NCBI GenBank assembly: GCA_026707405.1
Contig: JAPOWW010000011.1
Location: 124,001 to 188,000 of the forward strand
Length of the DNA stretch: 64,000 nt
DNA from: Chloroflexota bacterium
GTDB taxonomy: Bacteria > Chloroflexota > UBA11872 > VXNJ01
Direction: 5' to 3'
The notes under the pieces are model-generated. The model saw only the letters and a program-made list of their open reading frames with translations. It ran no database searches and had not been told where the DNA came from. Made by a program: the position numbers and the translations under genes. Each line of letters begins with the position of its first letter. Within the stretch, counting starts at the first letter, position 1. Below, in pieces: positions 3,295 to 22,276 of the stretch.

Positions 3295-3400
3295 CGTACG
3301 ATAGTCCTCTAGAGTGCTGACCGGGCGCAAAGGCGATCCGCGGGCAGCCTGAACCGTCGCAATCAGATATCGAGGCCACCGTCGATCGGGAGGTGGATAA

Positions 3401-5467: not shown

Positions 5468-5483
5468 GCAGACAATTGTCTGC
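5468..5483. promoter_or_regulatory. perfect 16-bp palindrome GCAGACAATTGTCTGC upstream of Com-like ORF (operator candidate)
   Basis: Direct reading; self reverse-complementary. Confidence 0.4.
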
Positions 5484-5516
5484 ATCCGGTTTTGAGGCGA
5501 TGAACGGACGCCGACC

Positions 5517-5732
5517 GTGAATCGCATCAAATCGACGTACCGCTCCTTGAGCGCCGGCGAGCGCCAGGCCCGCTGCGGCAGGTGCGGCAAGCTCCTGGGC
5601 GAGTTTCTTGTCGTTGATGGAACGATCCGTTGTCCTCGCTGCAAGTTTGACAACGACTTGAAGATGAGGCCATTGAGCGTGGCGGTGCAAGTTACTGACA
5701 ATCACAGGATGGAGGCTATGCCCAGGGACTAA
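5517..5732 (+). CDS. Com-like small zinc-finger protein (Mu Com superfamily-like)
   Basis: ARCGRCGKLLGEFLVVDGTIRCPRCKFDN: paired CxxC with RCxxCxKLL..IRCPRCK pattern; GTG start; adjacent to tail genes. Confidence 0.6.
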   Translation: MNRIKSTYRSLSAGERQARCGRCGKLLGEFLVVDGTIRCPRCKFDNDLKMRPLSVAVQVTDNHRMEAMPRD

Positions 5733-5760
5733 ACCGGTTTTGACGCAGGGAGCGCCATTC

Positions 5761-5795
5761 GAGCGCCGGATCTTTCGATCTGGCGCTCTTTTTTT
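5761..5795 (+). terminator. intrinsic terminator
   Basis: GAGCGCCGGATC-tttc-GATCTGGCGCTC (12-bp stem with one G-U) followed by T-run. Confidence 0.85.
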
Positions 5796-5839
5796 AACGG
5801 GATCACGGGCGCGAAAAAGCAGCCGAAAGGAGGCAGCTA

Positions 5840-6553
5840 TTGGCACGAATGCATGGGGCGGAGGTAAGAGTGTATTTGGGCGATAGGGACGTTGGCGGAG
5901 ACCTCACGTCAATCGCCCCGGCGGTGTCGGCCGATACCCACGAGGTCACTAACTTCAGCTCGAACGGCTGGAAACAAAGCGTCGTGGGGCTCGTGGGGTG
6001 GACCGCCTCGATCGAGGGGTTCTACGACCCGGCGGTTGATGGCTATGGCCGTCAGCTCAGCGATCTGCTCGGCGCGACCGGCGGGATTCTGAGCATCTTC
6101 GACGGCGATGCCGATGCGGTCGGAAAAGGCGGCTGGCTTGGCTCGGAGGCGATCCTGACCGAGAGATCGGAGTCGGTCAGCGTGGCCGATCTCGTCAAGC
6201 TCAGCGGAGTTCTGCAAGGGGCCGGCCGGGCGGGAATGGACGCCAGGCTGCTGCATCCCCACGGCCAGGAATCGGCAAGCGACAGCGGGTCCTCGGTCGA
6301 CAACTCGGCGGCTTCGGCTAACGGTGGTCGGGCGAACCTTCACGTAACGGCCGCGACCGGCCGGTGGGCGGTCAAGATCGAGCACTCCACCGACAACTCA
6401 ACGTGGGCCGACTTGGTCGCGTTCTCGTCGATCAATGCCGGTACGTCATTCACTAAGGAGGTGTCAGGTCAGGTAAACCGCTATTTGCGAGCGCGATGGA
6501 CGGAAGGCGCGGCAGGCAGCGTGACTTTCGTTCTCGGGTTCGCGCGCTACTAG
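5840..6553 (+). CDS. phage tail tube-like protein (paralog 1)
   Basis: TTG start with RBS aaaggagg; MARMHGAEV...ADTHEVTNFSSNGWKQSVVGLVGWTASIEGFYD pattern shared with next gene. Confidence 0.65.
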   Translation: MARMHGAEVRVYLGDRDVGGDLTSIAPAVSADTHEVTNFSSNGWKQSVVGLVGWTASIEGFYDPAVDGYGRQLSDLLGATGGILSIFDGDADAVGKGGWLGSEAILTERSESVSVADLVKLSGVLQGAGRAGMDARLLHPHGQESASDSGSSVDNSAASANGGRANLHVTAATGRWAVKIEHSTDNSTWADLVAFSSINAGTSFTKEVSGQVNRYLRARWTEGAAGSVTFVLGFARY

Positions 6554-6650
6554 GAGGTGGACTGAGAGTAGACCGGAACCGGATTCAGTGAGTTTTTCAG
6601 CCCGGCTTATATAGGTAAGTGAGCGCGGGTAACGATAGGAAGGTATCACA

Positions 6651-7052
6651 TTGGCAAGAGTGCATGGCAAGGACCTGAGCAGCCTGAGCGTCGATGACGC
6701 GGGCGGGACCGCCAGGAATCTGCTCAACGAGACTATCGGGGTTGACTTTTCGACTTCGGCCGATACGCACGACACGACCACCATGGGCGACGACTGGAAG
6801 GAGTTCACCGCCGGGCTCAAGGGCGGCGACACTTTCACCCACGAAGTCTTCTACAACAACTCCGCCACGACGGGCACTGCGGCCGTCTATCGCGGACGCA
6901 TCGGCGTGGCCGGTTCGTTCAGTTTCAGCGACGGCACTTTGACCGCGTCGATGGAGACAATCGTCACCAACGTTTCCGAGTCTTACTCGGTCGCGGACAT
7001 GATCAAGATCACGGCGACCCACCAGGTCACCGGCGCCGTGACGTTCGGCTAA
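6651..7052 (+). CDS. phage major tail tube-like protein (paralog 2)
   Basis: TTG start; MARVHGKDLSSLSVDDAG...SADTHDTTTMGDDWKEFTAGLKGGDTFTHEVFYNN, typical siphovirus tail tube N-terminus. Confidence 0.7.
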   Translation: MARVHGKDLSSLSVDDAGGTARNLLNETIGVDFSTSADTHDTTTMGDDWKEFTAGLKGGDTFTHEVFYNNSATTGTAAVYRGRIGVAGSFSFSDGTLTASMETIVTNVSESYSVADMIKITATHQVTGAVTFG

Positions 7053-7072
7053 TTGCTGGAGGGTAACGAGAC

Positions 7073-7366
7073 GTGGCCGCATCAAGCGAAATTGTCTGGG
7101 CCAACGGACTGCTGCGACGCGACCTTGGCGGCGAACTGGAGGGCTGCTGGATCGGCATCGATCCGGCCATGCTCACCATGGGGTTGCTCGAGGACCTCTA
7201 CGGCGCCGATCCCAAGCAGCTGCTCGACTCGGTGTCGGGTTGCCTGGCCGACGGCGATCTTCCGCATGGGTTGGACCGCGACGGCTTGCGGGCGCTCACC
7301 CGCTCGCAGTTCGCCGAAATCTCGAATGCCGTGGCGGAGGCGTACCGCGTCCCAAAAGTGAGCTGA
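7073..7366 (+). CDS. tail assembly chaperone, short product (G-like)
   Basis: GTG start with RBS ggagg at 7058; position directly after tail tube gene; ends just after slippery heptamer. Confidence 0.6.
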   Translation: MAASSEIVWANGLLRRDLGGELEGCWIGIDPAMLTMGLLEDLYGADPKQLLDSVSGCLADGDLPHGLDRDGLRALTRSQFAEISNAVAEAYRVPKVS

Positions 7367-7554
7367 AGGAGTTCGTTAAGTGGATTGCCGGTATGCGGGC
7401 GACGCCCAACCTGGCTCTGGTCTCCCTGTACCAGCGCGCCAGGATTTGCAGGACGTTTCCCGCATACCGGCTGCACGAGCTCCACGATCTTCCCGTGGCG
7501 GAGCTCCTGTGGGCGATCGAACTCCTGGACGCCGAGCAAAAGGCCGCCAGGTGA
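7073..7554 (+). CDS. tail assembly chaperone, -1 frameshift product (GT-like, predicted 160 aa)
   Basis: Zero-frame C_CCA_AAA at 7351-7357; -1 frame open to 7554 (SELKEFVKWIAGMRATPNLALVSLYQRAR...EQKAAR). Confidence 0.6.
7351..7357 (+). promoter_or_regulatory. -1 ribosomal frameshift slippery site CCCAAAA
   Basis: X_XXY_YYZ heptamer in correct phase (CCA=7352, AAA=7355) 2 codons before the zero-frame stop. Confidence 0.65.
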
Positions 7555-7653
7555 TCTTGGGCCGGTTCCCAGGCTAGGCGGGGACGTCTGGCGGGCATCG
7601 TTGCCCCTGCGGCTATGGTTGTATCAAGACCAACTTTGACGAGGTGGCAGTTT

Positions 7654-8604
7654 ATGCGTGAGCGGATTGCGGCGGTCTTGGCTGCGATGAGGCGGCGGTT
7701 GAGCAATCGCGCCGCGCTGATTACGCTGGTCGTCATTTTGACGCCCCTCGCCATCGTTTTGGCGTCCCGGATAACGGATCCGGGGCCGCCGGCTTTAACC
7801 GAAGTCGCTCCCACCGTGGAAACATCGAACACGTCTCCGCCTTCCGCCACGCCCACGCCGGAGCCGCGTGGCCAACGGCAAGCTCCCAGCGCGTGGCAGC
7901 TTGAGACAAGGTCAAACCCGGAGCTGGCGGCGCGATACCCGCTCGCCGACCTCTATACCGCCGACGAGATCGCCTATTTCAAGGAAATCGCGTTCGGCAG
8001 CGATACGAGTGCGAACTCCAGTCTAGACCCGGATCTGGTCCGGACGATTGTTGAGAATAGGCCCGCTGGTAGTGGAGATCGTATCGGTAAGTGGGATGAT
8101 GGCGAGGTTGGATACTATGTCGCCGGTAGTCCTACCGCGAGCGATCTGGCCGAAATCGAGTCCATCATTTCCAAGCTGGAATCATTGATTCCGACGCTGC
8201 GCTTTCGTGCGCTGGAGTTGTCGGAAGCGGAAGTGGATGTGTCGATGTTTATCGCCTTTGCAGGAGAAAACGACTATCTGCTGGAAGGAGTGGTTGCTTC
8301 TAACTGGATGAGTTACGCGGGACTGGGTGGGATTGGAGGAGACAGCTTCGTTATCGAGAAGGCCGTCATCTTCATCAACTCCGATCATCCGGAAGAGATC
8401 CGAAGGCGAGCGATCGTTGAGGAGATCACGCAAGCTCTCGGACTGACAAATGATTCGTGGTGGTATCCGGACAGCCGGTTCTATCAGGGGTTTTCCATCA
8501 AACCCGGCCTCGCCGATATCGACGAGGCGTTGATCCGGCTCCTCTACGATCCCCGAATCAAGCCGGGAATGACGATCGAGGACCTGGAGAGGATGGGCTT
8601 ATAG
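7654..8604 (+). CDS. membrane-anchored DUF2927-like protein, paralog A
   Basis: N-terminal TM, T/P linker, ADLYTADEIAYFKEIAFG...VEEITQALGLTNDSWWYPDSRFYQG...LIRLLYDPRIKPGMTIEDLERMGL; RBS gaggtgg. Confidence 0.65.
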   Translation: MRERIAAVLAAMRRRLSNRAALITLVVILTPLAIVLASRITDPGPPALTEVAPTVETSNTSPPSATPTPEPRGQRQAPSAWQLETRSNPELAARYPLADLYTADEIAYFKEIAFGSDTSANSSLDPDLVRTIVENRPAGSGDRIGKWDDGEVGYYVAGSPTASDLAEIESIISKLESLIPTLRFRALELSEAEVDVSMFIAFAGENDYLLEGVVASNWMSYAGLGGIGGDSFVIEKAVIFINSDHPEEIRRRAIVEEITQALGLTNDSWWYPDSRFYQGFSIKPGLADIDEALIRLLYDPRIKPGMTIEDLERMGL

Positions 8605-8703
8605 GCAGGAGCAAAACATGCTAGAAGGGGCGACTTGTTGTCGCTCGTGTCCCGATTTACTAAGCCGATTTCATAGTCAATAAACGAATACCAGAGAGCC
8701 GCC

Positions 8704-8733
8704 GAGCACCTTCGAGAATGGAGGTGCTTTTTT
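8704..8733 (+). terminator. hairpin AGCACCT-tcgagaatgg-AGGTGCT-TTTTT, copy 1 (also contains SD GGAGGTG)
   Basis: Direct reading; repeated after each tandem paralog. Confidence 0.75.
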
Positions 8734-8840
8734 CATGCAAATGACGATGGAAACGAGGGGCGTGCCGAACGCAATCCGGCGTCCCTGTTGACCCTGCAGT
8801 TAAAGTTGTTTTCGGACACACGTTTGACAGGTTCGAGTTA

Positions 8841-9986
8841 GTGCGAGACTGGATTGAGGGCATACCGGCCACGATGAGGGTTAGATTGAGCTATCGCATC
8901 GCGCTGTTGGCGCTGGTCCTGGTCGCGACCTGGGGCGCGATAGCCGGGTGTGAGCGTACTGATCCGGCTCAGCCGGCCGGGACGGTCGAGACCCAGGAAG
9001 TCTCACTCCCGTCGACTCCGGCTCTGGAGACACCCACGGTTGCCAGCCTAGCCACGCCCGCGCCGACGATGGCGACGCCAACACCGGAGCCGACAGACAC
9101 TCCTACACCGGTGATAGAGACACCAACTCCGGTTGCGTCGCCCACGCCTACGCCTGCGATGCCGACACCGACTTCTACGCCTGCCGCGACTCCGCCCCCG
9201 GTACCGACGCCGACACGCCCGGCTCTCACGGCAACGCCCGCGCCGCGTGGGCAAAGGGAGGCTCTCAGCGAGTGGCAGCTTGAGACGAGGTCAAACCCGG
9301 AGCTTGCGGCGCAGCACCCGCTGACGACTCTATACACCGCCGACGAGATCGCTTACTTCAAGGAGATCGCATTTGGCGTCGATCCGGATATCGTACGCAT
9401 CGGTTTAGACCTAGAACTAGTCCGGAGGATGGTCGAGAATAAGATCGCGGCTGGTAAAGAGGGCATCCAGAAGTGGGACGATGGCGAGATTGGGTATTAT
9501 ATCGCTGGCAATCCCACGGCGCGTGATCTGGCCGAAGTCGAATCCATCATTTCCAAACTGGACTCCCTGATTCCCGTGCTGCACTTTCGGCGAGTGGAGC
9601 TGTCAGATGCGCGAGCGGATGCGTCATTATTGATTGTCTTCCGAGGAAAGGACGATAAGCTCGGCAGCGATATTGTTGTTTCTGATTGGATGAACGTTGG
9701 GGGCCTAGGTTATTTTGGTGCAAACAACTTTGTCATTGACGCAGCTCTTGTGATAATCAACTCTGATCAGCCAGAGGAGTATCGCAGGGGAGTCATCGTC
9801 GAGGAGATTACCCAAGTAATGGGGCTGCCAAACGACTCGTGGTGGTACCCCGACAGCAGGTTCTATCAAGGTCTTTCTGCGAGTCATGGCCTTGCCGATG
9901 TCGACGAGGCGTTGATACGGCTGCTATACGATCCGCGAATCGAGCCGGGAATGACGATCGAGGACCTGGAGAGGATGGGCCTATAG
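8841..9986 (+). CDS. DUF2927-like lipoprotein, paralog B, with long T/P-rich linker
   Basis: Lipobox ..AIAGC; long TPTP-rich linker; VEEITQVMGLPNDSWWYPDSRFYQG core. Confidence 0.65.
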   Translation: MRDWIEGIPATMRVRLSYRIALLALVLVATWGAIAGCERTDPAQPAGTVETQEVSLPSTPALETPTVASLATPAPTMATPTPEPTDTPTPVIETPTPVASPTPTPAMPTPTSTPAATPPPVPTPTRPALTATPAPRGQREALSEWQLETRSNPELAAQHPLTTLYTADEIAYFKEIAFGVDPDIVRIGLDLELVRRMVENKIAAGKEGIQKWDDGEIGYYIAGNPTARDLAEVESIISKLDSLIPVLHFRRVELSDARADASLLIVFRGKDDKLGSDIVVSDWMNVGGLGYFGANNFVIDAALVIINSDQPEEYRRGVIVEEITQVMGLPNDSWWYPDSRFYQGLSASHGLADVDEALIRLLYDPRIEPGMTIEDLERMGL

Positions 9987-10086
9987 GGTAGCGCGGAACT
10001 TACCGGGGAGGTTGACCTGTGGTCGTCCCGGTCCCGGTTGACGAAACCGATTTCATAGCAGACGAATTGAATACCAGAGAGCCGCC

Positions 10087-10117
10087 GAGCACCTTCGAGA
10101 ACGGAGGTGCTCTTTTG
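10087..10117 (+). terminator. hairpin GAGCACCT-tcgagaacgg-AGGTGCTC-TTTT, copy 2
   Basis: Direct reading. Confidence 0.75.
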
Positions 10118-10130
10118 TTGCAAATGACGA

Positions 10131-11177
10131 TTGAGACGGGGGGCGTGCCGAAGGCAGTCCAGCGTCCCCGTTGACGCTGCGGTTATGGTGGTTTCGGGAC
10201 TGATGTTCAACTGGTTGGAGCTAGTGCGAGGCTGGATCAAGGGCATACCGGCCGCGATGACGCTTAGGTTGAGTTGCCGTGTCGCGTTGATCGTGCTGGT
10301 CGTGATTGTGACGCCATTAGTCATCGTTTTGGCGTCCCGGATAACCGATCCGGGGCCGATGGCTTCAACCGAAGTCGCTCCCACCGAGGAAACATCGTAC
10401 ACGTCTCGGCCTTCCGCCACGCCCACGCCGGAGCCGCGCGGACCGCGGCAAGCTCCCAGCGCGTGGCAGCTTGAGACGAGGTCAAACCCGGAGCTGGCGG
10501 CGCGATACCCGCTCGCCGACCTCTACACTGACGACGAGATCGCCTATTTCAAGGAGATCGCGTTCGGCATAGATCCGCAGTTCGTGGATGGTGGATTAGA
10601 CCCGGATCTGGTCCGGAGGATTGTTGAGATTGAGCTCGCTGGTCATGGAGATCGTATCGGTAAGTGGGACGATGGTGAGATTGGGTATTACGTCGCCGGT
10701 AGTCCTAGCGAAAGCGATCTGGTCCAAGTCGAGTCCATCATTTCCAGACTGGACTCACTGATTCCGATGCTGAGTTTTCGTGCGCTGGAGTTGTCGGAAG
10801 CGGAAGTGGACGTGTCGATGTTTATCGTCTTTGCAGGCGAAAACGACGATCTGCTGGAAAGGGTAGCTGTTTCTGGCGGGCTGAAAGTTTGGGGACTGGG
10901 TGTGGTTGGAGGAGACAGCTTTGTTATCGAGAAGGCCTTAGTCATAGTCAACTCCGATCAGCCGGAAGAGGTTCGAAGGCGCGCTATCGTCGAGGAGATC
11001 ACGCAAGCTCTCGGACTGGGAAATGACTCGTGGTGGTACCCGGACAGCAGGTTTTATCAGGGAGGCTCTGTCAATTACGGCTTGGCAGATATCGACGAGG
11101 CGCTGATCCGGCTCCTCTACGATCCCCGAATCAAGCCCGGAATGACGATCGAGGACCTGGAAAGGATGAGGCTATAA
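10131..11177 (+). CDS. membrane-anchored DUF2927-like protein, paralog C (closest to A)
   Basis: Near-identical blocks to paralog A (VIVLASRITDPGP, SATPTPEPRG, QAPSAWQLETRSNPELAARYPLADLYT); true start probably downstream (10183-10255). Confidence 0.65.
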   Translation: MRRGACRRQSSVPVDAAVMVVSGLMFNWLELVRGWIKGIPAAMTLRLSCRVALIVLVVIVTPLVIVLASRITDPGPMASTEVAPTEETSYTSRPSATPTPEPRGPRQAPSAWQLETRSNPELAARYPLADLYTDDEIAYFKEIAFGIDPQFVDGGLDPDLVRRIVEIELAGHGDRIGKWDDGEIGYYVAGSPSESDLVQVESIISRLDSLIPMLSFRALELSEAEVDVSMFIVFAGENDDLLERVAVSGGLKVWGLGVVGGDSFVIEKALVIVNSDQPEEVRRRAIVEEITQALGLGNDSWWYPDSRFYQGGSVNYGLADIDEALIRLLYDPRIKPGMTIEDLERMRL

Positions 11178-11280
11178 GGGAAACGTTCAACACTTAACCG
11201 GGAGAGGCGGAGAAAATCTCACTTGACCCGGTTGACGAAACCGATTTCACAGTTGATAAACGAATACCAGAGAGCCGCCG

Positions 11281-11310
11281 AGCACCTTCAAAGAACGGAG
11301 GTGCTTTTTT
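11281..11310 (+). terminator. hairpin AGCACCT-tcaaagaacgg-AGGTGCT-TTTTT, copy 3
   Basis: Direct reading. Confidence 0.75.
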
Positions 11311-11478
11311 GATGCGGATGATGATTGAGCCAGATGTGCTACCTAACGCGGTTCGGCGAGCGGGAGACTGGGGGCGAGGATGCTTGAGCAATTGTGCCGA
11401 GTGGAGTTCGCGGTCTAGCGGTGAGGCGCTGCTCCGGGCTGTAGAGTCAGTAGGCACCGATGGCGAGGGTGGCAAACG

Positions 11479-12423
11479 GTGGTACTGGTGATCGGTCCGA
11501 GGTCGATCGCTTTCGGTCGAAATGGTATGGAGACGCTCATGCGGATATTGAAATGGCTGGCGCCGCATCGCGGTTGGATTGCCCTGGTCGGCGGACTCGC
11601 GGTTTTGATGCTGGTTCTGGCGTTTAGCCCAGCTATCCGATCTCTCTCCCAACGGGCAGAGAGCTATATCCAAGCACGGTCCGACTCCAGCGTGGCGCTT
11701 CCTCCGTTCGACGAACTCTACTCACCGGAGGCCGTCGAGTATTTCCTGGTGGCGGCGTTTCGCGAACACGGCCCCGGCGCCGCCGAACCTGATCTCCCTC
11801 GACTAGGTTTCATTTACAAATGGAACCAGGACATCAATATTTGTGTCGAGGGCGCCAACGATGTCGACCGCCTGATTGTGTTCTGGGTGATAGAAACCGT
11901 GCGACCGCTCATTCAACCCATTGAGATCGCCCAAGTCGACTGTGCGGAGGAATACAACTTTCGGGTCGTCTTCACCAGTGTGCGTCGATTCGGCGATTAC
12001 GTTAACTGGAAATTTGACACTGTCGATGGCCGTATCTTCTACGGAGGCACCGCAGCTATGTCCATGGAAAACGAGGGCCTAATTTCCAGTGCCATTGCTC
12101 TGGTCAATACGGATATTCCCACGGATTTTTCGTTTGATCTTAAGCAAGTTGTTCGTACTGGCGCTACATGGGAGGAGATGTCGCACGGACTCGGTTCGAT
12201 TCACGATTCCTACTACGACGATCAGAGTCTTTTCTATCAGGGTACGAATCTGGTTTACATGCTCAGTGACATCGACCAGGAGCTCATCAGGATCCTCTAC
12301 GACCCGCGCATAGAGCCAGGCATGAGGTACTGCGACGTATATCAACTATTGCGGTCCGAGTCGTCCGCGAGTTTCGTGGCGTCGAGTGCCGTTCTCGGCG
12401 CGGAAGGGCCGGACCGGTGCTAG
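11479..12423 (+). CDS. divergent DUF2927-like membrane-anchored protein, paralog D
   Basis: TM near N-terminus; WEEMSHGLGSIHDSYYDDQSLFYQG...LIRILYDPRIEPGM; start may be 11527. Confidence 0.6.
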   Translation: MVLVIGPRSIAFGRNGMETLMRILKWLAPHRGWIALVGGLAVLMLVLAFSPAIRSLSQRAESYIQARSDSSVALPPFDELYSPEAVEYFLVAAFREHGPGAAEPDLPRLGFIYKWNQDINICVEGANDVDRLIVFWVIETVRPLIQPIEIAQVDCAEEYNFRVVFTSVRRFGDYVNWKFDTVDGRIFYGGTAAMSMENEGLISSAIALVNTDIPTDFSFDLKQVVRTGATWEEMSHGLGSIHDSYYDDQSLFYQGTNLVYMLSDIDQELIRILYDPRIEPGMRYCDVYQLLRSESSASFVASSAVLGAEGPDRC

Positions 12424-12565
12424 GCGCGGCGTCTTCATTGAAGAGTATCAACAGGACTGCCAGGTGGATATCTCCGCAATTGCGGGATCACATTTTCGGA
12501 AGGAGTACGCGATTGGAACGGTTGTTGGATTGCGGTACCAGTGAACTACAGGGGCTGACGTAGCC

Positions 12566-14080
12566 ATGGGATCGGGCCAGACAGTGGATTCGCGCTCGAA
12601 GTGCAAATGGTGCCAGCGGCCCAGGAGACTAAGAAACAAGTGGGTAAAGGAGGACGTCTGGATTGACACTGCTCTCGGTCGCGTACTGGTACAAAGGTGG
12701 GTCGAGAAAGAGCAGTGGGAGTGTCAGGGACCGCGAACGTGTCCTAGGCCAACCGCCACTCCGACTCCAACGAGCACTCCAACTCCCACGAGCACGCCGG
12801 AGTCGACTGTGACGGTGCCTCCTCAACCGACGGTAACGGTTAGTCCAGCTCCAACAGTTTCGCCGACACCGACCGTTTCGTTGGAAGACCCACAAGACTT
12901 GATGGACCGTCACGTTGCTGCCGTGATGGCTGCAGGGGCAGCTGGACTGGAAGCCGACGAACAACGGGCAATGGCTGTCAATCTAGCAGTCGAGCATGGT
13001 CTCGCCGTTCCTCCCGATCTTTTTGAACCGAGTACCGCTAAGTTCCCTGAAAACTTGCCTGGCGATCTGCGCCCGAACCCTCCCGTCCCTCGAGTGCAGG
13101 GACCGACTTTTGGACCCAACTACGGTCCTGATTTTGCCCGGTCCTGGGAACCGGAGGTCCACGATATGAGCTGGCTGGCGGATTCGTTTGCAGCATTCCC
13201 ACAGCTTGGCCACTGGCGGGACTCCGCTCAACCCTGGGATCGAGAGATCGAATCCCAGAGGCAGCTGACGGCGGCGTTGAGAGAATCGACCCCTGCCCGG
13301 CAGCAAATGATCGACTCCTTAGGTACAACCGAAACGAAAGTCGGCGATTTGGGGGCGGCTGTGCTCGGAACAGGACCCCATTGGCAGATGATGAGCGAGT
13401 CGGTCGATCAAAGCACTCTCGCGTACGACCTACTCGGCGGCAGAATGCAGGAGAACCAGAAAGTGTCGCTTGACTGGGGAAAGGGACTGCTATCTGACGC
13501 CCAGGCGGTCGGCTACGGCCATCCTCACGAAATGGCCAAAGTGGGCGTTGGGATCAGCGGCGTGACCGACAACTACCTCGCTCTGCAAGCCACCCTGCTG
13601 AACTTCCCGAATCTACCTTTGATGCCTCAGGCGAACTGGATTTGGCATCGGCGGGGTGCGGGTGCGTCCTCGGGAGGAGGATCGACGCCCGCCACTCCGC
13701 AAGTCGACCAGGATGCGCTGGACGAGGTGGGGCTGTGGGGAACCAGGCCGGACCAGATTCCCGACGCCATCGACGAGGCTCGGAACCTGGCCGCGCATGG
13801 CGCGACGGAACGCGAGCGGAAGCTCGCGCGGGAGCGACTCAAGGTGCTGCATCAGCAACGGTTTGAGCTGGGCGGCGTGGTGCCCGGTCCGGTCGGCGCG
13901 CCCGTGCCCGCCATATTGCACGGCGGCGAGCGGGTGCTTCGCAGCGGTCAGTCGGGCGGCGGCCCGATTAACGTCTGCCTGCACGTGCACGGGGCCGTCC
14001 TGTCAGAAAGAGAGCTGGTGAGAAGCGTGCGGGAAGGCCTCATAAGGCTCAACCGCGAAGTAACGGAGATGGGATTCTAG
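12566..14080 (+). CDS. short tape-measure-like protein with T/P-rich insert
   Basis: C-terminus GGVVPGPVGAPVPAILHGGERVLRSGQSGGGPINVCLHVHGAVLSERELVRSVREGLIRL is typical of siphovirus tape measure C-termini. Confidence 0.55.
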   Translation: MGSGQTVDSRSKCKWCQRPRRLRNKWVKEDVWIDTALGRVLVQRWVEKEQWECQGPRTCPRPTATPTPTSTPTPTSTPESTVTVPPQPTVTVSPAPTVSPTPTVSLEDPQDLMDRHVAAVMAAGAAGLEADEQRAMAVNLAVEHGLAVPPDLFEPSTAKFPENLPGDLRPNPPVPRVQGPTFGPNYGPDFARSWEPEVHDMSWLADSFAAFPQLGHWRDSAQPWDREIESQRQLTAALRESTPARQQMIDSLGTTETKVGDLGAAVLGTGPHWQMMSESVDQSTLAYDLLGGRMQENQKVSLDWGKGLLSDAQAVGYGHPHEMAKVGVGISGVTDNYLALQATLLNFPNLPLMPQANWIWHRRGAGASSGGGSTPATPQVDQDALDEVGLWGTRPDQIPDAIDEARNLAAHGATERERKLARERLKVLHQQRFELGGVVPGPVGAPVPAILHGGERVLRSGQSGGGPINVCLHVHGAVLSERELVRSVREGLIRLNREVTEMGF

Positions 14081-14518
14081 ATGGCTACCACAACTACAAC
14101 CTATGCGTTCAAGAAGTCGGAGGACTCCGACGCCGGACTCGCCACCTACCTGGTGGACGAGCGGGCGAACTGGGACAAGATCGACGGTCTGCTGGCCGGC
14201 GTCGATCCGCTCAAGCTCGGCGCGGGCAATACCTTCACTATCCGCAACAGCGCCGCGTCGAACCTGCTCACCCTGGTCGAGAGTACCGGACTGCTCGCGC
14301 TGCCGAGCACCGGCATGAGCGCGGGAGTCGTGATCGGCTCCGACGTTCACCTCTACCGGGGCGCGGCCAACCGCCTGGAGATGGCCGGCGGCGACGCGCT
14401 GGTCGTCCGGGGCGGCGCGGGTGACTTCCCCAACCCGGTCAACGGAATGCTCTGGTACAACACCACCACCGGCAGGATGCGCGTCTACCAGGACGGCGCC
14501 TGGAGCAACGTTGCTTAG
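14081..14518 (+). CDS. tail fibre-like protein
   Basis: Located between tape-measure-like and tail-tip genes; C-term NPVNGMLWYNTTTGRMRVYQDGAWSNVA typical of phage fibre proteins. Confidence 0.5.
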   Translation: MATTTTTYAFKKSEDSDAGLATYLVDERANWDKIDGLLAGVDPLKLGAGNTFTIRNSAASNLLTLVESTGLLALPSTGMSAGVVIGSDVHLYRGAANRLEMAGGDALVVRGGAGDFPNPVNGMLWYNTTTGRMRVYQDGAWSNVA

Positions 14519-14622
14519 GCGCGGCGGGCTTCAGACCCGCGTGGAAACTGACGGCGCGATCCCCGGTTGTCCGGCGATGCCCGGCTTCAACTCGGCCCTG
14601 TCGGGCTATCGGAGGTTCCCGA

Positions 14623-14985
14623 ATGCAAGCTGACCGGCAGCCAACGTCTAACGGAAAGGTAAACGGAGCGCGGCGGGCGGAGAAGCTCGAAATCCCCGCC
14701 GCCGTGCGGGAAGAGGTCCTCAGGCTGGAGCGCGCCCTGCTCCGCGAGCAGGTGAACCTGCATCGATTCAACACCGAGGTATTCAAGGCCAAGGCCCTCA
14801 CCCTCCAGTCCGAGCTTCGGATTCGCGAGCTCGCCGCCCGCATCGACGAGCGCGCCTCGGCCGTCGCCAGGCGGCTGCGTCTCGACGACGACGCGGTAAT
14901 CGACTTCGTCGCGTGCAAGGTCGTCCGCAAGGGCGGCGAAACCGTTGGGACCGCGCCGGACCGTCGGCAAGGGAGGCTCAGCTAG
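14623..14985 (+). CDS. coiled-coil hypothetical protein of tail module
   Basis: Helix-rich EEVLRLERALLREQVNLHRFNTEVFKAKALTLQSELRIRELAARIDERASA. Confidence 0.5.
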   Translation: MQADRQPTSNGKVNGARRAEKLEIPAAVREEVLRLERALLREQVNLHRFNTEVFKAKALTLQSELRIRELAARIDERASAVARRLRLDDDAVIDFVACKVVRKGGETVGTAPDRRQGRLS

Positions 14986-14986
14986 C

Positions 14987-16279
14987 ATGGCCGTCAGACA
15001 GGGTTGCAGCCTCGACCGGGTCTTCCACGCGTCCAGCTTCGGTCCGAATCTCTCCGATTGGGGCGAGCGGGCGTTGGTCGAGATCATGACCTGCGCCGCC
15101 GAGGGCCTCACGCTCACCGTGCGGGCCGCTTTCGGCCAGGACGCCATGACGCCCGCGCCCGTCTGGACCGATATCACCGACGATGTGTTGGAGGGCGGCG
15201 TCAGGCGCGGCGCGCAGTTCGAGGTCGACCGCATGGAACCCGGCGGCGCCGACGTCACGCTCTCCAACACTCACGGCGACTACTGGCCCGGCAACGCCGG
15301 TGGCGCGCACTACCCCCACGTCCGCCCTTCGACGCGCTTCAACATCCGCGCCACCTACCTCGGAACGACCTGGGACCTGTTCACCGGGTTTGTCACCGAC
15401 TGGCGCAACGCGTACCTGGGAGTGGGCGGCGCGGTTCCGGTCGCGAGGGTCACCCTCGTCGACGCCCTGCGTTTCCTGCGCGGCTTCGATCTAAACGTCG
15501 ATCCGGGCTATGCCCAGGAAAAGTCGGGAACGCGTATCGAAAACGTGCTCGACGACATGGGCTGGCCCGCCCGTGATCGGGATCTGGATGCCGGCGTCAG
15601 CGAGGTCCAGGCCAGCGGCGCGCTGGAGCACAAGGGCGCGCTCGAGCACTGCGACGACGTGCTCAAGTCCGAACGCGGCAGGCTGTTCGTCACCGGCGAC
15701 GGCGCGATCCGCTACGACGACCGGCACGCGCGCTACAAGAGCCCGCTCAACCTGAGCCAGACGACCTTTGGCGACGGTCCCGACGAGCTGGGCTATCACG
15801 ACGTGGAGTTCGAGTTCTCCGACCAGCTCATCAAGAACGACGTCCGCGCTCAGCGCGTGGACGGAGTCGAGCGGACCGCTAGCGACGCCGTTTCGCAGGG
15901 CGTCCACGGCAAGCGGTCCAGGAACACTTCGGGACTCTTGAACACCGACGACAACGAGGTCCAGGACCAGGTCAACTACGACGTCGCCCGCCTGAAGGAC
16001 CCGCATTCCCGCGTGAAGTCCATCACGCTGCGTCCTCGACGGGACCAGGCGGCGCTGCTCGCGCAAGCCCTCGGACGGGAGCTCGCCGACCGCATAACGC
16101 TTCGGCTCGACGACGCATCCGTGGACGGACCGTTTCATATCGAAGGGATCAGCCACCTCTTCCGCGCGGGATTTTGGGAGACCCAATGGTGGGTCTCCGA
16201 CGGAGACGCTGAGTCGGCGTGGGTGCTGGGCGTCCCGGGTTTCACCGAGCTTGGCTATACCACCAGGCTCGCCTACTGA
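14987..16279 (+). CDS. minor tail / tail-tip-like protein
   Basis: ATG with RBS gggagg; VWTDITDDVLEGGVRRGAQFEVDRMEPGGADVTLSNTHGDYWPGN typical of phage minor tail proteins. Confidence 0.6.
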   Translation: MAVRQGCSLDRVFHASSFGPNLSDWGERALVEIMTCAAEGLTLTVRAAFGQDAMTPAPVWTDITDDVLEGGVRRGAQFEVDRMEPGGADVTLSNTHGDYWPGNAGGAHYPHVRPSTRFNIRATYLGTTWDLFTGFVTDWRNAYLGVGGAVPVARVTLVDALRFLRGFDLNVDPGYAQEKSGTRIENVLDDMGWPARDRDLDAGVSEVQASGALEHKGALEHCDDVLKSERGRLFVTGDGAIRYDDRHARYKSPLNLSQTTFGDGPDELGYHDVEFEFSDQLIKNDVRAQRVDGVERTASDAVSQGVHGKRSRNTSGLLNTDDNEVQDQVNYDVARLKDPHSRVKSITLRPRRDQAALLAQALGRELADRITLRLDDASVDGPFHIEGISHLFRAGFWETQWWVSDGDAESAWVLGVPGFTELGYTTRLAY

Positions 16280-16386
16280 GGTGAATGAGTCAAAGAGACG
16301 AAGCGATTGGAGTTGCGATGACGGTTGACTAGCTAGGGGGAATCTGGCCGCGCCGCCATGGCGTGGCAAGCGCCGCGCGAGAGTCG

Positions 16387-16426
16387 CCGAACACCGGAGC
16401 GGACGGTGTTCGGTTTTCATTTTTTC
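16387..16426 (+). terminator. intrinsic terminator
   Basis: CCGAACACCG-gagcgga-CGGTGTTCGG followed by ttttcatttttt. Confidence 0.85.
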
Positions 16427-16440
16427 TAGAGGAGGTTTAC

Positions 16441-16908
16441 ATGTCGGAGCCATTAGCTCGGACAACCAACGCGAGTGGGCACTTGATACTCACTCATGAC
16501 GACGCGCAGGCTGCCATGCCGTTCCGGAGCTTCATCGCCAGGTGGTTCGTCAGGAACGGGCTAGGGCCTGTGCCTGCCCTCGACCAGAAGCGCGGCGTGA
16601 TACCGGCCCGTATAAGGCAGGGCAGATGGGTGGTGCTGTGCCAGAACCCGGGTTGCAACAGCGCGGTGATCGCCGATGAGAACGAGCGCTGTTTCATCTG
16701 CGCCGAGTGCGGAAGCCCGGAAAACGACCGCCACTGGTACTCGGTCCAGTGGCCGCCGCCGGAGGTCCGCCGCCGGATCGAGGAGCTTCTCCTGGCCAGG
16801 CCAGCCATCAGTCCCGCTCAGGCCAGGAACCGCAACTGGGAGCCCGGCGAGTCGCTCGCCGACCTGCGGGCGCAGAATGCGCTCTACGGCGTGGGAGGTG
16901 AAAACTAA
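16441..16908 (+). CDS. phage-associated zinc-ribbon-like protein
   Basis: VLCQNPGCNSAVIADENERCFICAECG, RNWEPGESLADLRAQNA; RBS gaggagg. Confidence 0.55.
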   Translation: MSEPLARTTNASGHLILTHDDAQAAMPFRSFIARWFVRNGLGPVPALDQKRGVIPARIRQGRWVVLCQNPGCNSAVIADENERCFICAECGSPENDRHWYSVQWPPPEVRRRIEELLLARPAISPAQARNRNWEPGESLADLRAQNALYGVGGEN

Positions 16909-17570
16909 TGGCCTGGACCGCCCCTCAAACATGGACGCTGGGACAGGTCGTCCAGCCGTCCGACATGAACACGCAGATTCGCGACAACCTGAGCGAGACG
17001 GCCCCGGCCAAGGCCGCCACCAGCGGCTACCTGTTTCGGGTCACCGGCGCCAACACGCTGGAAGAGGTGCAGGACCAGACGACCGGCTGGCTGGACGCGA
17101 GCAGCGCGATCCTGCCCTCCGGCGCTTTCGACTCGCCAGCGCAGCGCCGGTTGGTCGAGTCGGCGTCGCAGCGGTTCTGGTACGAGCTTCTGTTCGACGA
17201 CGCAAGCGCTCGGTACGCCCAGTGGCAGGTCGCGCTGCCACGCAACGCCGACCTTAGTGACGCAACGATAACTATCGTCTGGAAGGCCGCGGCCACCACC
17301 GGAAACGTCCGCTGGTCCATCGGCTATCAGGCCGTCGGCGATGACGACCTTTGGGACGCCGAGACCGTTTCCTTTAGTACCGACGGCGAAGACGCTGCAA
17401 AGGAGACAGCGGAAGATATGAACGAATACAGCCAAACGGCCGCGTTTACCGCCGCCACCGGCGATGTGCTGAGGATACGCATCGCCCGGCTCGGCGACCA
17501 CGCCAACGACTCGATGTCCGGCGATGCCAGGGTGCTGGGCGTGAAGCTCACGCTGGGGTTGAGTCACTGA
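16908..17570 (+). CDS. tail fibre / receptor-binding-like protein
   Basis: MAWTAPQTWTLGQVVQPSDMNTQIRDNLSETAPAK motif seen in phage structural proteins; overlaps neighbours by 1 nt. Confidence 0.5.
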   Translation: MAWTAPQTWTLGQVVQPSDMNTQIRDNLSETAPAKAATSGYLFRVTGANTLEEVQDQTTGWLDASSAILPSGAFDSPAQRRLVESASQRFWYELLFDDASARYAQWQVALPRNADLSDATITIVWKAAATTGNVRWSIGYQAVGDDDLWDAETVSFSTDGEDAAKETAEDMNEYSQTAAFTAATGDVLRIRIARLGDHANDSMSGDARVLGVKLTLGLSH

Positions 17571-18682
17571 TGCTGCACTTTCGAAAAAACACTCCGGAAC
17601 GTGAAGAGTGGTGGGCGATCAGCGACCAGACCGGCGAGGTCTTCGGTCCGTTCGATCCCGGCACTGTCTGGTTCGAGACGCCGCCGCAAGTGCGCGGCGG
17701 CGATCTGTTGCGCTTGCAGCGCGTCGCGGACCTGATCCTGAACGAGGCGCACGCCTCTTGGGAGCGGTTACAGCGCGCCCTTGCGTTCATGCAGCCAAAC
17801 GGCTCGGCTGTCTACAGGCGCTTCATGGAGTCCGGCATTCTGCCAACCCAGACCCCCGCGCTCGGTCTCGCCGGCGGCCTGGATATTCCGGCGTATTTCG
17901 GTGACGGGGAATCAGCTGGCACTGCCGGACTCCACTTTGACGACTCGCACAATGGAACTACTATCACGGGTTTCAATGGTGGGGCGGGCGTATCGGCAGA
18001 TCAGCACAGTGCCCGATCTGGACGAGCGGGATCCGGACCTGGGCGCGGTCTGCCTGGCGGTCCAGATTTTTCACGTAGCGGTTGCGGCGGCAGTGGCGGA
18101 GGGTATGGAACCGAGGGGGGTAACGGTTTAGCCGGTGGGAACAACTCGATTCCCGGTGGCGTGACGGTTCCCGCAATCTTAGCTCTCGAAGCCATGCGGC
18201 GAAACTCCTATACGCGCGACATTTTGGGCTTTGGTTCGGGCGGAGGTGGAGGTGGAACAAGTGAGAAGCATCAAGCTCAAAGTTCCATTACGGCAGGCTC
18301 AGGTGGTCAAGGCGGTTCTGCATTCATTTCCGTTGTTCACGGTGTTCTGTCTACTACGACAAGGTCGTTAGCGGGAAGCGACGGTGGCTCAGCTACGATA
18401 CCTTCGGGTGTCACTCATTCTGGCGGTGGCGGTGGCGGTGGTGCGGGCGGCTTATGGCTGGGTATGGCCAACAAGGTCATTTACGGGACAGGGGCGATAG
18501 ACGTCTCCGGCGGTAGGAGCGGTAGCGGCAGCAGCAGCCGCAATGGCGGGGCGGGCGGCGACGGCCGCGTGGTCCAGGTCTACTTCGACTCCAAGGCCGA
18601 CAACCTGCAGGTCACTAACGGCGTACAGTCCCAGTTCCGCATCCTGCGCAGCGTGCCCATCGGGCAGAACACGTTCTTATGA
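17570..18682 (+). CDS. glycine-rich tail tip/adhesin-like protein
   Basis: Multiple Gly runs (GSGGGGGGTS, HSGGGGGGGAGGLW, GGRSGSGSSSRNGGAGGDG). Confidence 0.5.
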   Translation: MLHFRKNTPEREEWWAISDQTGEVFGPFDPGTVWFETPPQVRGGDLLRLQRVADLILNEAHASWERLQRALAFMQPNGSAVYRRFMESGILPTQTPALGLAGGLDIPAYFGDGESAGTAGLHFDDSHNGTTITGFNGGAGVSADQHSARSGRAGSGPGRGLPGGPDFSRSGCGGSGGGYGTEGGNGLAGGNNSIPGGVTVPAILALEAMRRNSYTRDILGFGSGGGGGGTSEKHQAQSSITAGSGGQGGSAFISVVHGVLSTTTRSLAGSDGGSATIPSGVTHSGGGGGGGAGGLWLGMANKVIYGTGAIDVSGGRSGSGSSSRNGGAGGDGRVVQVYFDSKADNLQVTNGVQSQFRILRSVPIGQNTFL

Positions 18683-18808
18683 CGTTGGGACTCACCAGGC
18701 GGCCGGCGCGGAAAGGCGGCGCAATTGTTGGCCTCAGAGAGTCATACAGCGCCGTGCGTTCCGAGCCGGCCGCCTCAAGCTGGCCGCCAATCACACAGGA
18801 GACACAAA

Positions 18809-19144
18809 GTGGCTGAAGTTTCGACCGTGCTCGGGCAGATCGCACTGTCCACGAGCTTTCAGGACATCTACCATTCCGGCAACCTGCGCGCCCATGGCAC
18901 GCTGCATCTCTCCAACACGGGTTCGGCCGACCGGCGCGTGACCGTGACCCTGGAGGACTCGGACTCCAGCAACAACGGCGTCGCCGAGACCGTCTTCGCG
19001 GGAGTTGTGCCCGGAAGCTCGACCGGAGGCGACAACAGCGTCGTCATCAGGTTCATCCACCTGGACCCCGGCAAGGACCTACGGGCCAGGCAGGACGCGG
19101 GGGCCGACGTCGGCGCGGCGTTCCTCGGAGTGGAGATGGTGTGA
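18809..19144 (+). CDS. small tail-module protein, probable structural
   Basis: GTG start after caggaga; MAEVSTVLGQIALSTSFQDIYHSGNLRAHGTLHLSN... Confidence 0.45.
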   Translation: MAEVSTVLGQIALSTSFQDIYHSGNLRAHGTLHLSNTGSADRRVTVTLEDSDSSNNGVAETVFAGVVPGSSTGGDNSVVIRFIHLDPGKDLRARQDAGADVGAAFLGVEMV

Positions 19145-19321
19145 GGAGCCGCGGGTCAAGACCCGGCTGCGTCGAGCGAGTCATCCGATTCCATCGTGGA
19201 AAGTTACCTTCTAGCCATGCTGGCAGCCTCTCGTCTCGAATTGGCAGCCGGTCGCTGCGGACTCGACCTGGAGAAGCCGCCCCGATTCGCTAGCTGAAAA
19301 CCGAATAGTCGAGCGCCGCCG

Positions 19322-19348
19322 AGCGCCTTCAAAAACGGAGGTGCTTTT
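19322..19348 (+). terminator. hairpin AGCGCCT-..-AGGTGCT-TTT, copy 4 of repeated hairpin
   Basis: Shares GCCGCCGAGC upstream box and GGAGGTGCTTTT arm with copies 1-3. Confidence 0.6.
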
Positions 19349-19444
19349 CTGTGCAGAAGACGCGCAAGCCGGGATGGGAGTCCGGCGAATCCGGGCGGAG
19401 GCGGGGCCGGAGCCATCGAGACCCGAAATTGCCGATCGGGATCT

Positions 19445-19962
19445 CTAAGCCGCTCGCACGACGGTCGTTTTCGAGTCCCGCTCGTGCCATCCGAGTGAGA
19501 CATTAGCAAGAATGACGAAGACCCAAATCAGGTTCATCAGTGGTAATGCGAAGTACAACAGCGCTAGGAACTCGCGAAACGCCACGCGGACCCGGCTGGG
19601 GAGACGGCCGTCTTCCTGCATCACTATGTATAGCCCCGTGAGTTTTCGGCGGGGCGTCGTTCCGAACGCCAGGATTGCGACGCAGCGCAACGCCAAGACC
19701 CCCACAAAAACACATACATCACGAACGCAAACGCAAGGAGAACATGCATTACGTGTAAAACGGGATCTTCCAGCGTCCTCCCGTTTGACGCTGTCGATCC
19801 AGAAACAACGTCGGTTGAAGGAGCGTCGTCAGCTACCGTCCACCAGACCAATGCAAAGAGCGCGGTGGTGAAGACTACCGAGCAATCAACCATAAAGGCG
19901 GCGGTCCGATCGCGCAATGTCGCGAATGGCGCAGCTTCGCCGGGCTCGATCGCCTCCATCAC
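19445..19962 (-). pseudogene. RDD family membrane protein split by a frameshift
   Basis: ORF 19962-19624 (LRDRTAAFMVD..YVFLWG) continues in another frame as ORF 19705-19445 (VLALRCVAILAFGTTPRRKLTGLYIV..GWHERDSKTTVV); junction at a GGGGG run. Confidence 0.6.
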
Positions 19963-20166
19963 GGCGTATCCCTCAGTTGTGAAATGCTATCGATTATTGC
20001 AAACGATAAGTGAGTGCCAGTCCAAGGAGCCTGATGTTGTCTCATCCAGATCTCAATCCGACTCCCGCCTCGGCGGAACGTCGAGAAACAGATTCAGTGC
20101 CGAAACAGCTAGCGGCGCATACACTGGCGTTGTGGTGGAGATTTGCCGAGAGTGGGATCGTCTTAG

Positions 20167-20898
20167 ATGAAGTCAACAGCGTCCAGATTCCGGTCGCGAC
20201 AGTGGCTCATCCTGTACGCCCTGCATCTCATCATTGTGGCAGTGCTGGTCAGAGTTGCGGTCTCTTCGCCTCTCGAAGAATCTCTTCCGCCGTTCCACGA
20301 GATGTATACAGGCGAGCAGATCTCCTATTTCAAGGAGTTGGCGTTCGGGTGCGATCCCGAAACGTTGGAGTGGGCTCCTTGTGACGCAGATTTCATCGTC
20401 AAATGGTGCGGGCCAGTACGGGTCGGCGTGGCCGGGCAGCCATCGAACAGTGACTTGCGGGAAATCAACAGGGTCATCAACCAGCTGCGTCTATTGATCA
20501 GACCGGTTGAGATTTTCAGAGACGACTCAGACCCGAATCTCATCATCTATCTGGTTCCGGGCGACGAGTTCGGCCGGGTTCGCCCTGAGTTTCCGTCGGC
20601 AAGAGGAGTGGTCTCGGTGCAACCAGATCGGTCTGGATGCCTGTTTACGGGAGATGTTGCAGTCGACGCAACCAGGAATGAGCTGGTTCGCCGGAGCCTG
20701 ATTCGGGAGGAGCTTACTCAGGCGCTCGGTCTCTTGAAAGACTCCTGGACATACTCGGACAGCATCTTCTACCAGGGACAGGCGCTAATCGAGACGATTG
20801 AGTTTGCCGACATTGACGAAGCAGTGATTCGCCTTCATTACGACCCCCGGATTGAGCCGGGAATGACGGAGACGGATCTAGAGAAGCTGGGAGTTTAG
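20167..20898 (+). CDS. divergent DUF2927-like membrane-anchored protein, paralog E
   Basis: N-terminal TM; REELTQALGLLKDSWTYSDSIFYQG...IRLHYDPRIEPGMTETDLEKLGV. Confidence 0.65.
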   Translation: MKSTASRFRSRQWLILYALHLIIVAVLVRVAVSSPLEESLPPFHEMYTGEQISYFKELAFGCDPETLEWAPCDADFIVKWCGPVRVGVAGQPSNSDLREINRVINQLRLLIRPVEIFRDDSDPNLIIYLVPGDEFGRVRPEFPSARGVVSVQPDRSGCLFTGDVAVDATRNELVRRSLIREELTQALGLLKDSWTYSDSIFYQGQALIETIEFADIDEAVIRLHYDPRIEPGMTETDLEKLGV

Positions 20899-20903
20899 CC
20901 GAT

Positions 20904-22088
20904 ATGTCAATAAACGAATCTCATCTGCCAGGATGGCTCCAGAGTTGGCTGGAAGAGAAAGGAGAGGCAGTAGACGAATTCTTTTCCGATATAGAGATTG
21001 CGGCGCTGGAAGGTCTGGCAGATGGGCTTGAGATTGCTAGCCATTTGCCGCCTGGTCCGCCGACAGGTCGACCAAATGACCCAGTCCGCATTGCGGCCGA
21101 ACTCTTCCTCGGAAAACTGTTGAAGGATGCAGCGGACCAGCTCCGAGAGAGAGCGCATAGCAGCGGGCCTCCTCGCAGGACGGGACATGGTGAAGGCGGG
21201 CCGCCCCAATCGACGCCGGTATCAAATATCGATCAGTTTCAGCGTGCTCGGATTACGACCGCGATGCTAAAAGAGGCCGCTGACGAGAGAGAGCGGCGCC
21301 GGTACCTGCTATCCCAGGACTGGGATTTGGAGCGTCTCCCAAATCAACGTTTGGCTGATCTGCACGAGTTCGGGTTTGTCTCAGGCAATGCGACTACCCA
21401 CACCTGGCTACTGGGGGACACGCTTGAGCACGATCTGGCTCCCGCGCTGTCTGGAGCCGTCGACTCCCTCAGGCCGACCGATATCGCATTCGGCGATGTG
21501 GCTATGGGCTATGACGACCTGAAGTGGGTCTCGGACGATGTCCTGGAAGGCTTGACCGTCAACGCCGCCGCGATGAGCGCGGGACTGACTCCGTGGGTCG
21601 CTGGCATCTCCAAGGAGATCGAGCGGCGCAGACATGAGCTTGAAGCATATCGCCCCCAACCCGCGCCGGCGGCGCGCAGCGACTCGCCGCCCGGCAGCGG
21701 CTCCTCCGGGGGCGGTCTGTCGTGGGACGAGGGGGTTGACCTCTATCAGAAGAGGTCCCGCGAGACGGCGGAAAACATAGCGTGGATAAGACAACATCCC
21801 GATGACCAGGCTCAGTCCGGCGCGAACGTGGAATGGACGTTTAGAGACATCGTGCGGGATGCGGTGAAGAGGTCAGGCGAGGATGCGTTATTCGCGATGG
21901 GAGGCGTGGTTCCCGGGGCGTTTGGGACTCCCGTGCCGGCGGTAGTGCATGGCGGGGAGCGAATAGTGGGCGCGGGGAACGGAGGCGGCGTCCCGACAAA
22001 CCTTGAGGTCCACGTCCACGGAACGGTGATATCGGAGGGAGACCTGGCCAAGAACGTCCGCGACGGCCTCATGCGACGCTTTGACTGA
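20904..22088 (+). CDS. second tape-measure-C-terminus-like protein
   Basis: FAMGGVVPGAFGTPVPAVVHGGERIVGAGNGGGVPTNLEVHVHGTVISEGDLAKNVRDGLMRRFD. Confidence 0.5.
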   Translation: MSINESHLPGWLQSWLEEKGEAVDEFFSDIEIAALEGLADGLEIASHLPPGPPTGRPNDPVRIAAELFLGKLLKDAADQLRERAHSSGPPRRTGHGEGGPPQSTPVSNIDQFQRARITTAMLKEAADERERRRYLLSQDWDLERLPNQRLADLHEFGFVSGNATTHTWLLGDTLEHDLAPALSGAVDSLRPTDIAFGDVAMGYDDLKWVSDDVLEGLTVNAAAMSAGLTPWVAGISKEIERRRHELEAYRPQPAPAARSDSPPGSGSSGGGLSWDEGVDLYQKRSRETAENIAWIRQHPDDQAQSGANVEWTFRDIVRDAVKRSGEDALFAMGGVVPGAFGTPVPAVVHGGERIVGAGNGGGVPTNLEVHVHGTVISEGDLAKNVRDGLMRRFD

Positions 22089-22276
22089 AGTAGCTGTCTT
22101 CGGAGCTTTAGAGAGTAGGTAGCTATGTATTCCCTCCGCCGACCCAAGCCGACCTAGCCACTCCGGGGCGTACAGTCTCCCAGCACAAGCGCAGTAAAGG
22201 TGTGATCCCAGCAAGTTCGCCACCGCGAACCGTAGACGTTTTGAGAGTTATGACGACGCGTGTTGACCGGACGCGG

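What the first reader, a model, noticed from the sequence alone, without database searches (positions are those of the whole stretch)
5517..22088. Phage-tail-like module with no recognisable head, packaging, integration or lysis genes
Seen: two tail-tube-like proteins, frameshifted chaperone pair, two tape-measure-C-terminus-like proteins, tail-tip and fibre-like genes, zinc-ribbon and Com-like proteins, flanked directly by metabolic genes (phosphodiesterase at left, GH-like at right). No capsid, portal, terminase, integrase, sheath or holin is recognisable. Inference: a domesticated non-contractile tail particle (tailocin-like or injection-like), or a deletion remnant. Open frames, RBSs and terminators argue for maintained function.
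Basis: partly seen in the sequence, partly recalled or inferred. Interest (0 to 1): 0.75.

Follow-up and report, generated by a model that had tools for sequence, protein, structure and literature searches.

The report
Headless phage-tail island, tape measure rebuilt
A chromosomal island in an uncultured Chloroflexota bacterium keeps the tail half of a long-tailed phage without any head, and the gene that normally sets tail length has become a multi-copy family sharing only its tip-side end, which suggests the tail was repurposed rather than simply decaying.

Summary
Window 5495-22128 is a 16.6-kb island between a phosphodiesterase and a GHL10 gene; a same-genus genome has only a short gap there. 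It encodes Com, two tail tubes, a putative chaperone pair with an in-frame CCCAAAA -1 slippery site, a gp27/VgrG-fold hub, a Zn-ribbon, p220 and a Gly-rich protein, in the order seen downstream of head genes in a prophage and viral contigs. No head, packaging, lysis, sheath or terminator gene was found.

In relatives these are multi-copy, dispersed and N-terminally variable, usually behind a membrane-anchored exported protein (DUF2927 here, alpha/beta-hydrolase in the sister family). (2) Four sister-genus species share a headless tail with dN/dS 0.08-0.28 in terminator, tube and hub.

Best reading: a reduced, domesticated non-contractile tail (0.55); decaying remnant is the main rival (0.30). 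Against: patchy presence, missing terminator, no lysis genes, hydrolase arrays without tails. Mechanism is inferred. New variant of a known kind.

The parts
5495..22128 (.). Island absent from the same site in same-genus genome G001 (boundaries = edges of blastn matches)
   Evidence: blastn window 102-5494 and 22129-25202 vs G001 contig 1-5384 and 5443-8517
5517..5732 (+). Com-like zinc ribbon
   Evidence: Zn_ribbon_Com 2e-6, phrog_6417 2e-6
5840..6553 (+). Tail tube protein 1
   Evidence: phrog_9522 major tail protein 4e-37
6651..7052 (+). Tail tube protein 2
   Evidence: phrog_10528 8e-10
7073..7366 (+). Putative tail-assembly chaperone, upstream (G-like) frame
   Evidence: position after tubes, overlap with next ORF; no profile hit
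7351..7357 (+). -1 slippery heptamer CCCAAAA in frame
7240..7554 (+). Putative chaperone, downstream (T-like) frame reached by -1 shift
7615..8604 (+). DUF2927 protein 1, N-terminal membrane anchor
   Evidence: PF11150 1.7e-26; hydropathy
8841..9986 (+). DUF2927 protein 2, lipobox-like N-terminus
   Evidence: PF11150 2.5e-25
10131..11177 (+). DUF2927 protein 3
   Evidence: PF11150 4e-24
11479..12423 (+). DUF2927 protein 4 (EEMSHGLGSIH motif)
   Evidence: PF11150 1.4e-14
8665..8731 (+). Repeated intergenic unit with terminator-like stem (GAGCACCT...AGGTGC + T-run) after DUF2927 gene 1; further copies at 10048-10114, 11241-11307 and 19282-19348
   Evidence: repeat family D8; sequences
12566..14080 (+). 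Tape-measure-C-terminus protein A (Zn-ribbon/PT-rich N-terminus)
   Evidence: E=1e-33; no canonical N-terminus or hydrophobic segment
14081..14518 (+). Small fibre/appendage-like protein
   Evidence: weak phrog/pfam matches only
14623..14985 (+). Unassigned 120-aa protein
   Evidence: no match
15086..16279 (+). Tail hub (gp27/gp44/VgrG-type fold)
   Evidence: phrog_5313 3e-27; fold match E 9e-17
16441..16908 (+). Zn-ribbon protein following hub
   Evidence: same position as the 128-143-aa Zn-ribbon gene in viral contigs
16908..17570 (+). p220, tail-tip associated protein (MAWTAP... N-terminus)
   Evidence: homologues after hub in G011, G013, G018, G022 and G047
17570..18682 (+). Glycine-rich fibre-like protein
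   Evidence: same position and Gly-rich character in relatives; weak match in G011
18725..19144 (+). Unassigned 139-aa protein
   Evidence: no match
19445..19962 (-). Frameshifted RDD-family remnant
   Evidence: two frames; weak RDD match; intact RDD beside third tape-measure copy
20167..20898 (+). DUF2927 protein 5
   Evidence: PF11150 3.9e-27
20904..22088 (+). Tape-measure-C-terminus protein B
   Evidence: third paralogue at G000:C7:34265-35707

Best explanation
The island is a reduced, host-kept module from a Chloroflexota siphophage tail: tube, hub, tip and fibre genes without a head, making at most a sheathless tail-like particle or tail-tip complex. The tape measure has become a multi-gene family of soluble proteins that keep only the tip-side C-terminus, which probably docks on the hub, while the N-terminal part varies. 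Shown: gene content, hub fold, shared gene order with phages that have heads, loss of the tape-measure N-terminus and hydrophobic segment, purifying selection on the tail genes of four sister-genus genomes, and an absent-island allele in the same genus. Inferred: that particles form, that the C-terminus docks to the hub, and that the variable part is payload or adaptor and the DUF2927 proteins are surface partners.
For: Same tube-(chaperone)-tape-measure-hub-Zn-p220 order after capsid and connector genes in viral contigs and a prophage. Headless version in G011, G013, G018 and G022, flanked by the host gene Gfo/Idh (G013, G018) or an enolase-family gene (G022, G011). dN/dS there: terminator 0.08-0.14, tube 0.08-0.20, hub 0.13-0.28, flanking host genes 0.04-0.18. 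Hub fold. In-frame slippery site kept in the window. All 16 module tape-measure copies measured have max 19-residue hydropathy 0.8-1.5 against 1.9-2.4 in 7 full tape measures. C-terminal columns 84-97% identical against 20-60% upstream. Tape-measure copy B versus third copy, C-terminal 234 codons: dN/dS 0.19.
Against: Patchy: strong hub match in 6 of 24 order genomes; same-genus G001 lacks the island. The window lacks a terminator; no chaperone was seen after the tube in G013. No lysis or release genes. The RDD gene in the island is frameshifted. Low dN/dS can also reflect earlier phage life, and tail dS is often lower than flank dS, suggesting exchange between species. Hydrolases also form arrays without tail or tape-measure genes in five sister genomes, so they need not be cargo. 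No expression or particle data.
Confidence: 0.55

Rival explanations
1. Cryptic prophage remnant: the tail half is all that survived a deletion and is drifting towards loss, with host genes accumulating around it.
For: Terminator and tape-measure N-terminus missing, RDD gene frameshifted; G001 junction keeps a 26-nt match to the 3' end of the third tape-measure copy, as a deletion scar would; G023 keeps only a 125-aa tape-measure C-terminus and G019 keeps tape-measure genes without tail; patchy distribution.
Against: All tail ORFs in the window are open, including the programmed frameshift; purifying selection across four sister-genus species sharing the headless layout; the tape-measure family has multiplied rather than shrunk.
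Confidence: 0.3
2. F-type tailocin: a phage-tail bacteriocin that kills related bacteria after release by lysis.
For: Headless, sheathless tail gene set with fibre-like proteins, as in rhizoviticin (PMC10811719).
Against: No holin or endolysin in the island; rhizoviticin keeps lysis, regulatory and early phage genes, which are absent here. Tape measures lack the hydrophobic segment of phage ones.
Confidence: 0.12
3. Split system: the tail is completed by a head encoded elsewhere in the genome (gene-transfer-agent-like or satellite).
For: The same genome has terminase, capsid, connector and terminator genes on contig C6 and a portal on the same contig.
Against: The C6 cluster has its own terminator, a different 349-aa tube and a chaperone-like gene, with metabolic genes between portal and terminase. 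No portal-family match in headless G011, G013, G018 or G022.
Confidence: 0.03

Closest known systems
Siphophage tails related to Chloroflexota (prophage in genome G047, viral contigs L036, L037, L042, L044)
   Same: Tube(s), chaperone, tape measure, hub, Zn-ribbon (viral contigs) and p220-like genes in the same order; hub 41-49% identical
   Different: Those have capsid and connector genes upstream (terminase and portal seen in G047), a terminator and a full tape measure with hydrophobic segment
F-type tailocins (F-pyocin, rhizoviticin; PMC10811719)
   Same: Headless, non-contractile, phage-tail derived
   Different: No lysis cassette or regulator genes in the island, no terminator, tape measure reduced to its C-terminus and multi-copy
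Tape-measure-derived effectors of contractile injection systems (Tme, PMC11126660; Sle1, PMC13277306)
   Same: Tape-measure-related proteins with one conserved and one variable part, associated with a tail-derived machine
   Different: Those belong to sheathed systems; Sle1 keeps an N-terminal coiled coil and varies C-terminally. Here no sheath, the C-terminus is kept and the N-terminus varies
eCIS / T6SS spike (gp27/VgrG fold)
   Same: Hub fold
   Different: No sheath among the island ORFs; hub is embedded in a siphophage-type gene order

Membership tests
F-type tailocin | Phage tail tube and hub genes without head or packaging genes | tested here: met
F-type tailocin | No contractile sheath | tested here: met
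   no sheath profile among island ORFs
F-type tailocin | Lysis cassette for release (holin, endolysin) | tested here: not met
   no such profile among the 20 ORFs scanned
F-type tailocin | Bactericidal particle | not testable with these tools
   needs culture or expression
Siphophage tail module | Major tail protein | tested here: met
   phrog_9522 4e-37
Siphophage tail module | G/GT chaperones with programmed -1 frameshift | tested here: inconclusive
   in-frame CCCAAAA at 7351 in the overlap; no profile hit to chaperone families
Siphophage tail module | Full tape measure protein | tested here: not met
   only the C-terminal ~80 aa; no canonical N-terminus or hydrophobic segment
Siphophage tail module | Tail terminator | tested here: not met
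   none in the window island; present in headless relatives (phrog_17840 6e-27)
Siphophage tail module | gp27-fold hub | tested here: met
Contractile injection system | Sheath | tested here: not met
Gene transfer agent | Head and terminase in the same cluster | tested here: not met
   the head cluster on contig C6 has its own tail genes
Matrixin-like metalloprotease (for DUF2927) | Fold | tested here: inconclusive
   top PDB matches are MMPs, E 3e-4, but model pLDDT 58.5
Matrixin-like metalloprotease (for DUF2927) | HExxHxxGxxH zinc motif | tested here: not met
   EExxQxxG in four copies, EEMSHGLGSIH in copy 4

The most novel reading that the evidence does not exclude
A sheathless tail whose tape-measure gene was turned into a polymorphic payload/adaptor family: a constant C-terminus docks any family member into one shared hub, and genomes keep several dispersed alleles, mostly behind a membrane-anchored partner gene. 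This would be a non-contractile counterpart of contractile injection systems with tape-measure-derived effectors.
Probability: 0.2. Interest if true: 0.85.

Novelty: new variant of a known kind. Interest (0 to 1): 0.55.

Why it matters
The tail-derived protein-delivery machines I found described are contractile, and the non-contractile ones (F-type tailocins) are bactericidal. A headless non-contractile tail kept under purifying selection in relatives, with its tape measure replaced by a variable multi-copy family, would show how a tail can be repurposed without a sheath and would give a clear target for structural and expression work. My searches of the held papers found no report of such a system in Chloroflexota, which is not proof of absence.

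Tried and rejected
(1) Hydrolases as dedicated tail cargo: 13 of the 15 sister-genus tape-measure-C genes directly follow a hydrolase, but five tail-less genomes carry hydrolase genes at the same locus with no tape-measure gene, so I do not claim cargo. (2) Repeats between DUF2927 genes as recombination sites: they contain terminator-like stems and fit tandem duplication of gene plus terminator. (3) A head elsewhere completing the tail: see rivals. (4) A capsid-like gene conserved in sister-family genomes: a separate cluster beside the ATP-synthase operon in G006, so not part of this finding. (5) Single-protein scan of genome contigs gave nothing; the alignment query gave four sister-genus loci. 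(6) DUF2927 in viral contigs: only 4 weak loci. (7) Pfam scan of ten tape-measure-C proteins and PADLOC scan of ten proteins: no match. (8) One PHROG call failed on coordinates and was repeated.

Full report
What is there. The window lies at G000:C7:124001-188000 of a 3.13-Mb, 21-contig genome, 94.5% complete. The island runs from about 5495 to 22128. Same-genus genome G001 carries the left flank (phosphodiesterase, 88% identical) and right flank (GHL10-type gene, 93%) on one contig with only about 430 bp between the genes, against 17 kb in the window. At the G001 junction 26 nt match the 3' end of the third tape-measure copy at 96%. That reads as a deletion scar, so the genus ancestor may have had the island; a cassette boundary is the alternative.

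Tail genes. Two tubes, a Com Zn-ribbon, a pair of overlapping ORFs with an in-frame CCCAAAA -1 slippery heptamer, a hub whose model (pLDDT 88.8, 27 sequences) matches hubs and spikes of eCIS, Mu, T4, VgrG and monocin, then Zn-ribbon, p220 and a glycine-rich protein. The same order follows capsid and connector genes in viral contigs and in a complete prophage in G047, where terminase, portal, protease and capsid were confirmed by Pfam. Among annotated phage records the tube has 31-34% matches (Arthrobacter and Microcystis phages) and the hub only two weak ones. No head, packaging, lysis, sheath or integration gene was found among the island ORFs.

Relatives. A hub profile finds strong matches in 6 of 24 order genomes, plus a weak one in G001, and none in the 17 other class members. 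Four of 13 sister-genus genomes (G011, G013, G018, G022; the bin names suggest sponge metagenomes, from memory and not checked) carry a headless module with tube, tape-measure-C gene, hub and p220, and, where the contig reaches that far, Com and a terminator (phrog_17840). The flanking host genes are Gfo/Idh on the left (G013, G018) and an enolase-family gene on the right (G011, G022); in G011 the Gfo/Idh gene sits between the tube and hub blocks. dN/dS is 0.08-0.28 for terminator, tube and hub, against 0.04-0.18 for flanking host genes. Between G013 and G018 dS is 0.21-0.34 for these three tail genes and 0.46-0.68 for four flanking genes, so the tail may have moved between species (p220, at 0.68, does not follow this). 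At the same locus G019 keeps only tape-measure-C genes with hydrolases, and G023 a 125-aa remnant. Five tail-less genomes carry hydrolase genes there instead.

The tape measure. A profile of the ~80-residue C-terminus finds 3 copies in G000, 4 in G018, 3 each in G011 and G022, 2 each in G013 and G019 and 1 in G023, with a single hub per tail-bearing genome. Viral-contig tape measures with this C-terminus mostly begin with the usual tape-measure N-terminus, and seven full-length tape measures have a hydrophobic segment (19-residue hydropathy 1.9-2.4); 16 module copies do not (0.8-1.5). In the sister genus column identity is 84-97% in the C-terminus and 20-60% before it. No Pfam domain was found in ten of them. 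From general knowledge of phage tails, the tape-measure C-terminus faces the tail tip, so hub docking is the natural guess; it was not tested.

DUF2927. All five copies in the genome are in the island. Copies 1-3 are tandem duplicates with repeated terminator-like sequences and paralogue dN/dS 0.27-0.42. A six-sequence model (pLDDT 58.5) gives matrixins as best PDB matches (E 3e-4), but the zinc motif is degenerate, so I call it a possible pseudo-metzincin only.

Verdict. The tape-measure replacement is the new point. Domestication is my best explanation at 0.55, decay at 0.30. Comparison with tape-measure-derived effectors of contractile systems rests on PMC11126660 and PMC13277306, and with F-type tailocins on PMC10811719.

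Noticed in passing
G000:C6:41411-55999 (L167) and C6:26609-28021 (L166): A second phage-like region in the same genome: terminase, protease-like, capsid, connector, terminator, 349-aa tube and chaperone-like genes, then repeated short tape-measure-N-terminus-like and lipoprotein-like genes up to the contig end; the portal lies about 13 kb upstream on the opposite strand beyond metabolic genes.
   Followed up: partly
G006:C1:422448-440137 (L168/L169): A cluster with capsid-like, terminase-like, portal-like and M23-peptidase-like genes close to the ATP-synthase operon in a sister-family genome; weak capsid matches occur in every sister-family genome tested. Could be gene-transfer-agent-like; not analysed further.
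   Followed up: partly
G011, G013, G018 hubs (e.g. L019:7886-9769): Sister-genus hubs carry a ~200-residue insertion absent from the window hub and from the G005 and G047 hubs; it resembles a LamG-type carbohydrate-binding domain from memory, untested.
   Followed up: no
L147:10266-12845 (G000:C7:34265-36844): Third tape-measure-C copy stands alone beside an intact RDD-family gene in divergent orientation, mirroring the frameshifted RDD gene in the window.
   Followed up: partly
L211-L215, L152, L153: Sister-genus genomes carry 1-6 membrane-anchored alpha/beta-hydrolase-like paralogues around one Gfo/Idh-enolase locus; some paralogues lack a recognisable GxSxG motif.
   Followed up: partly
window 7615-11177: Three DUF2927 genes are tandem duplicates (71-86% nucleotide identity), each followed by a near-identical terminator-containing intergenic unit.
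   Followed up: yes
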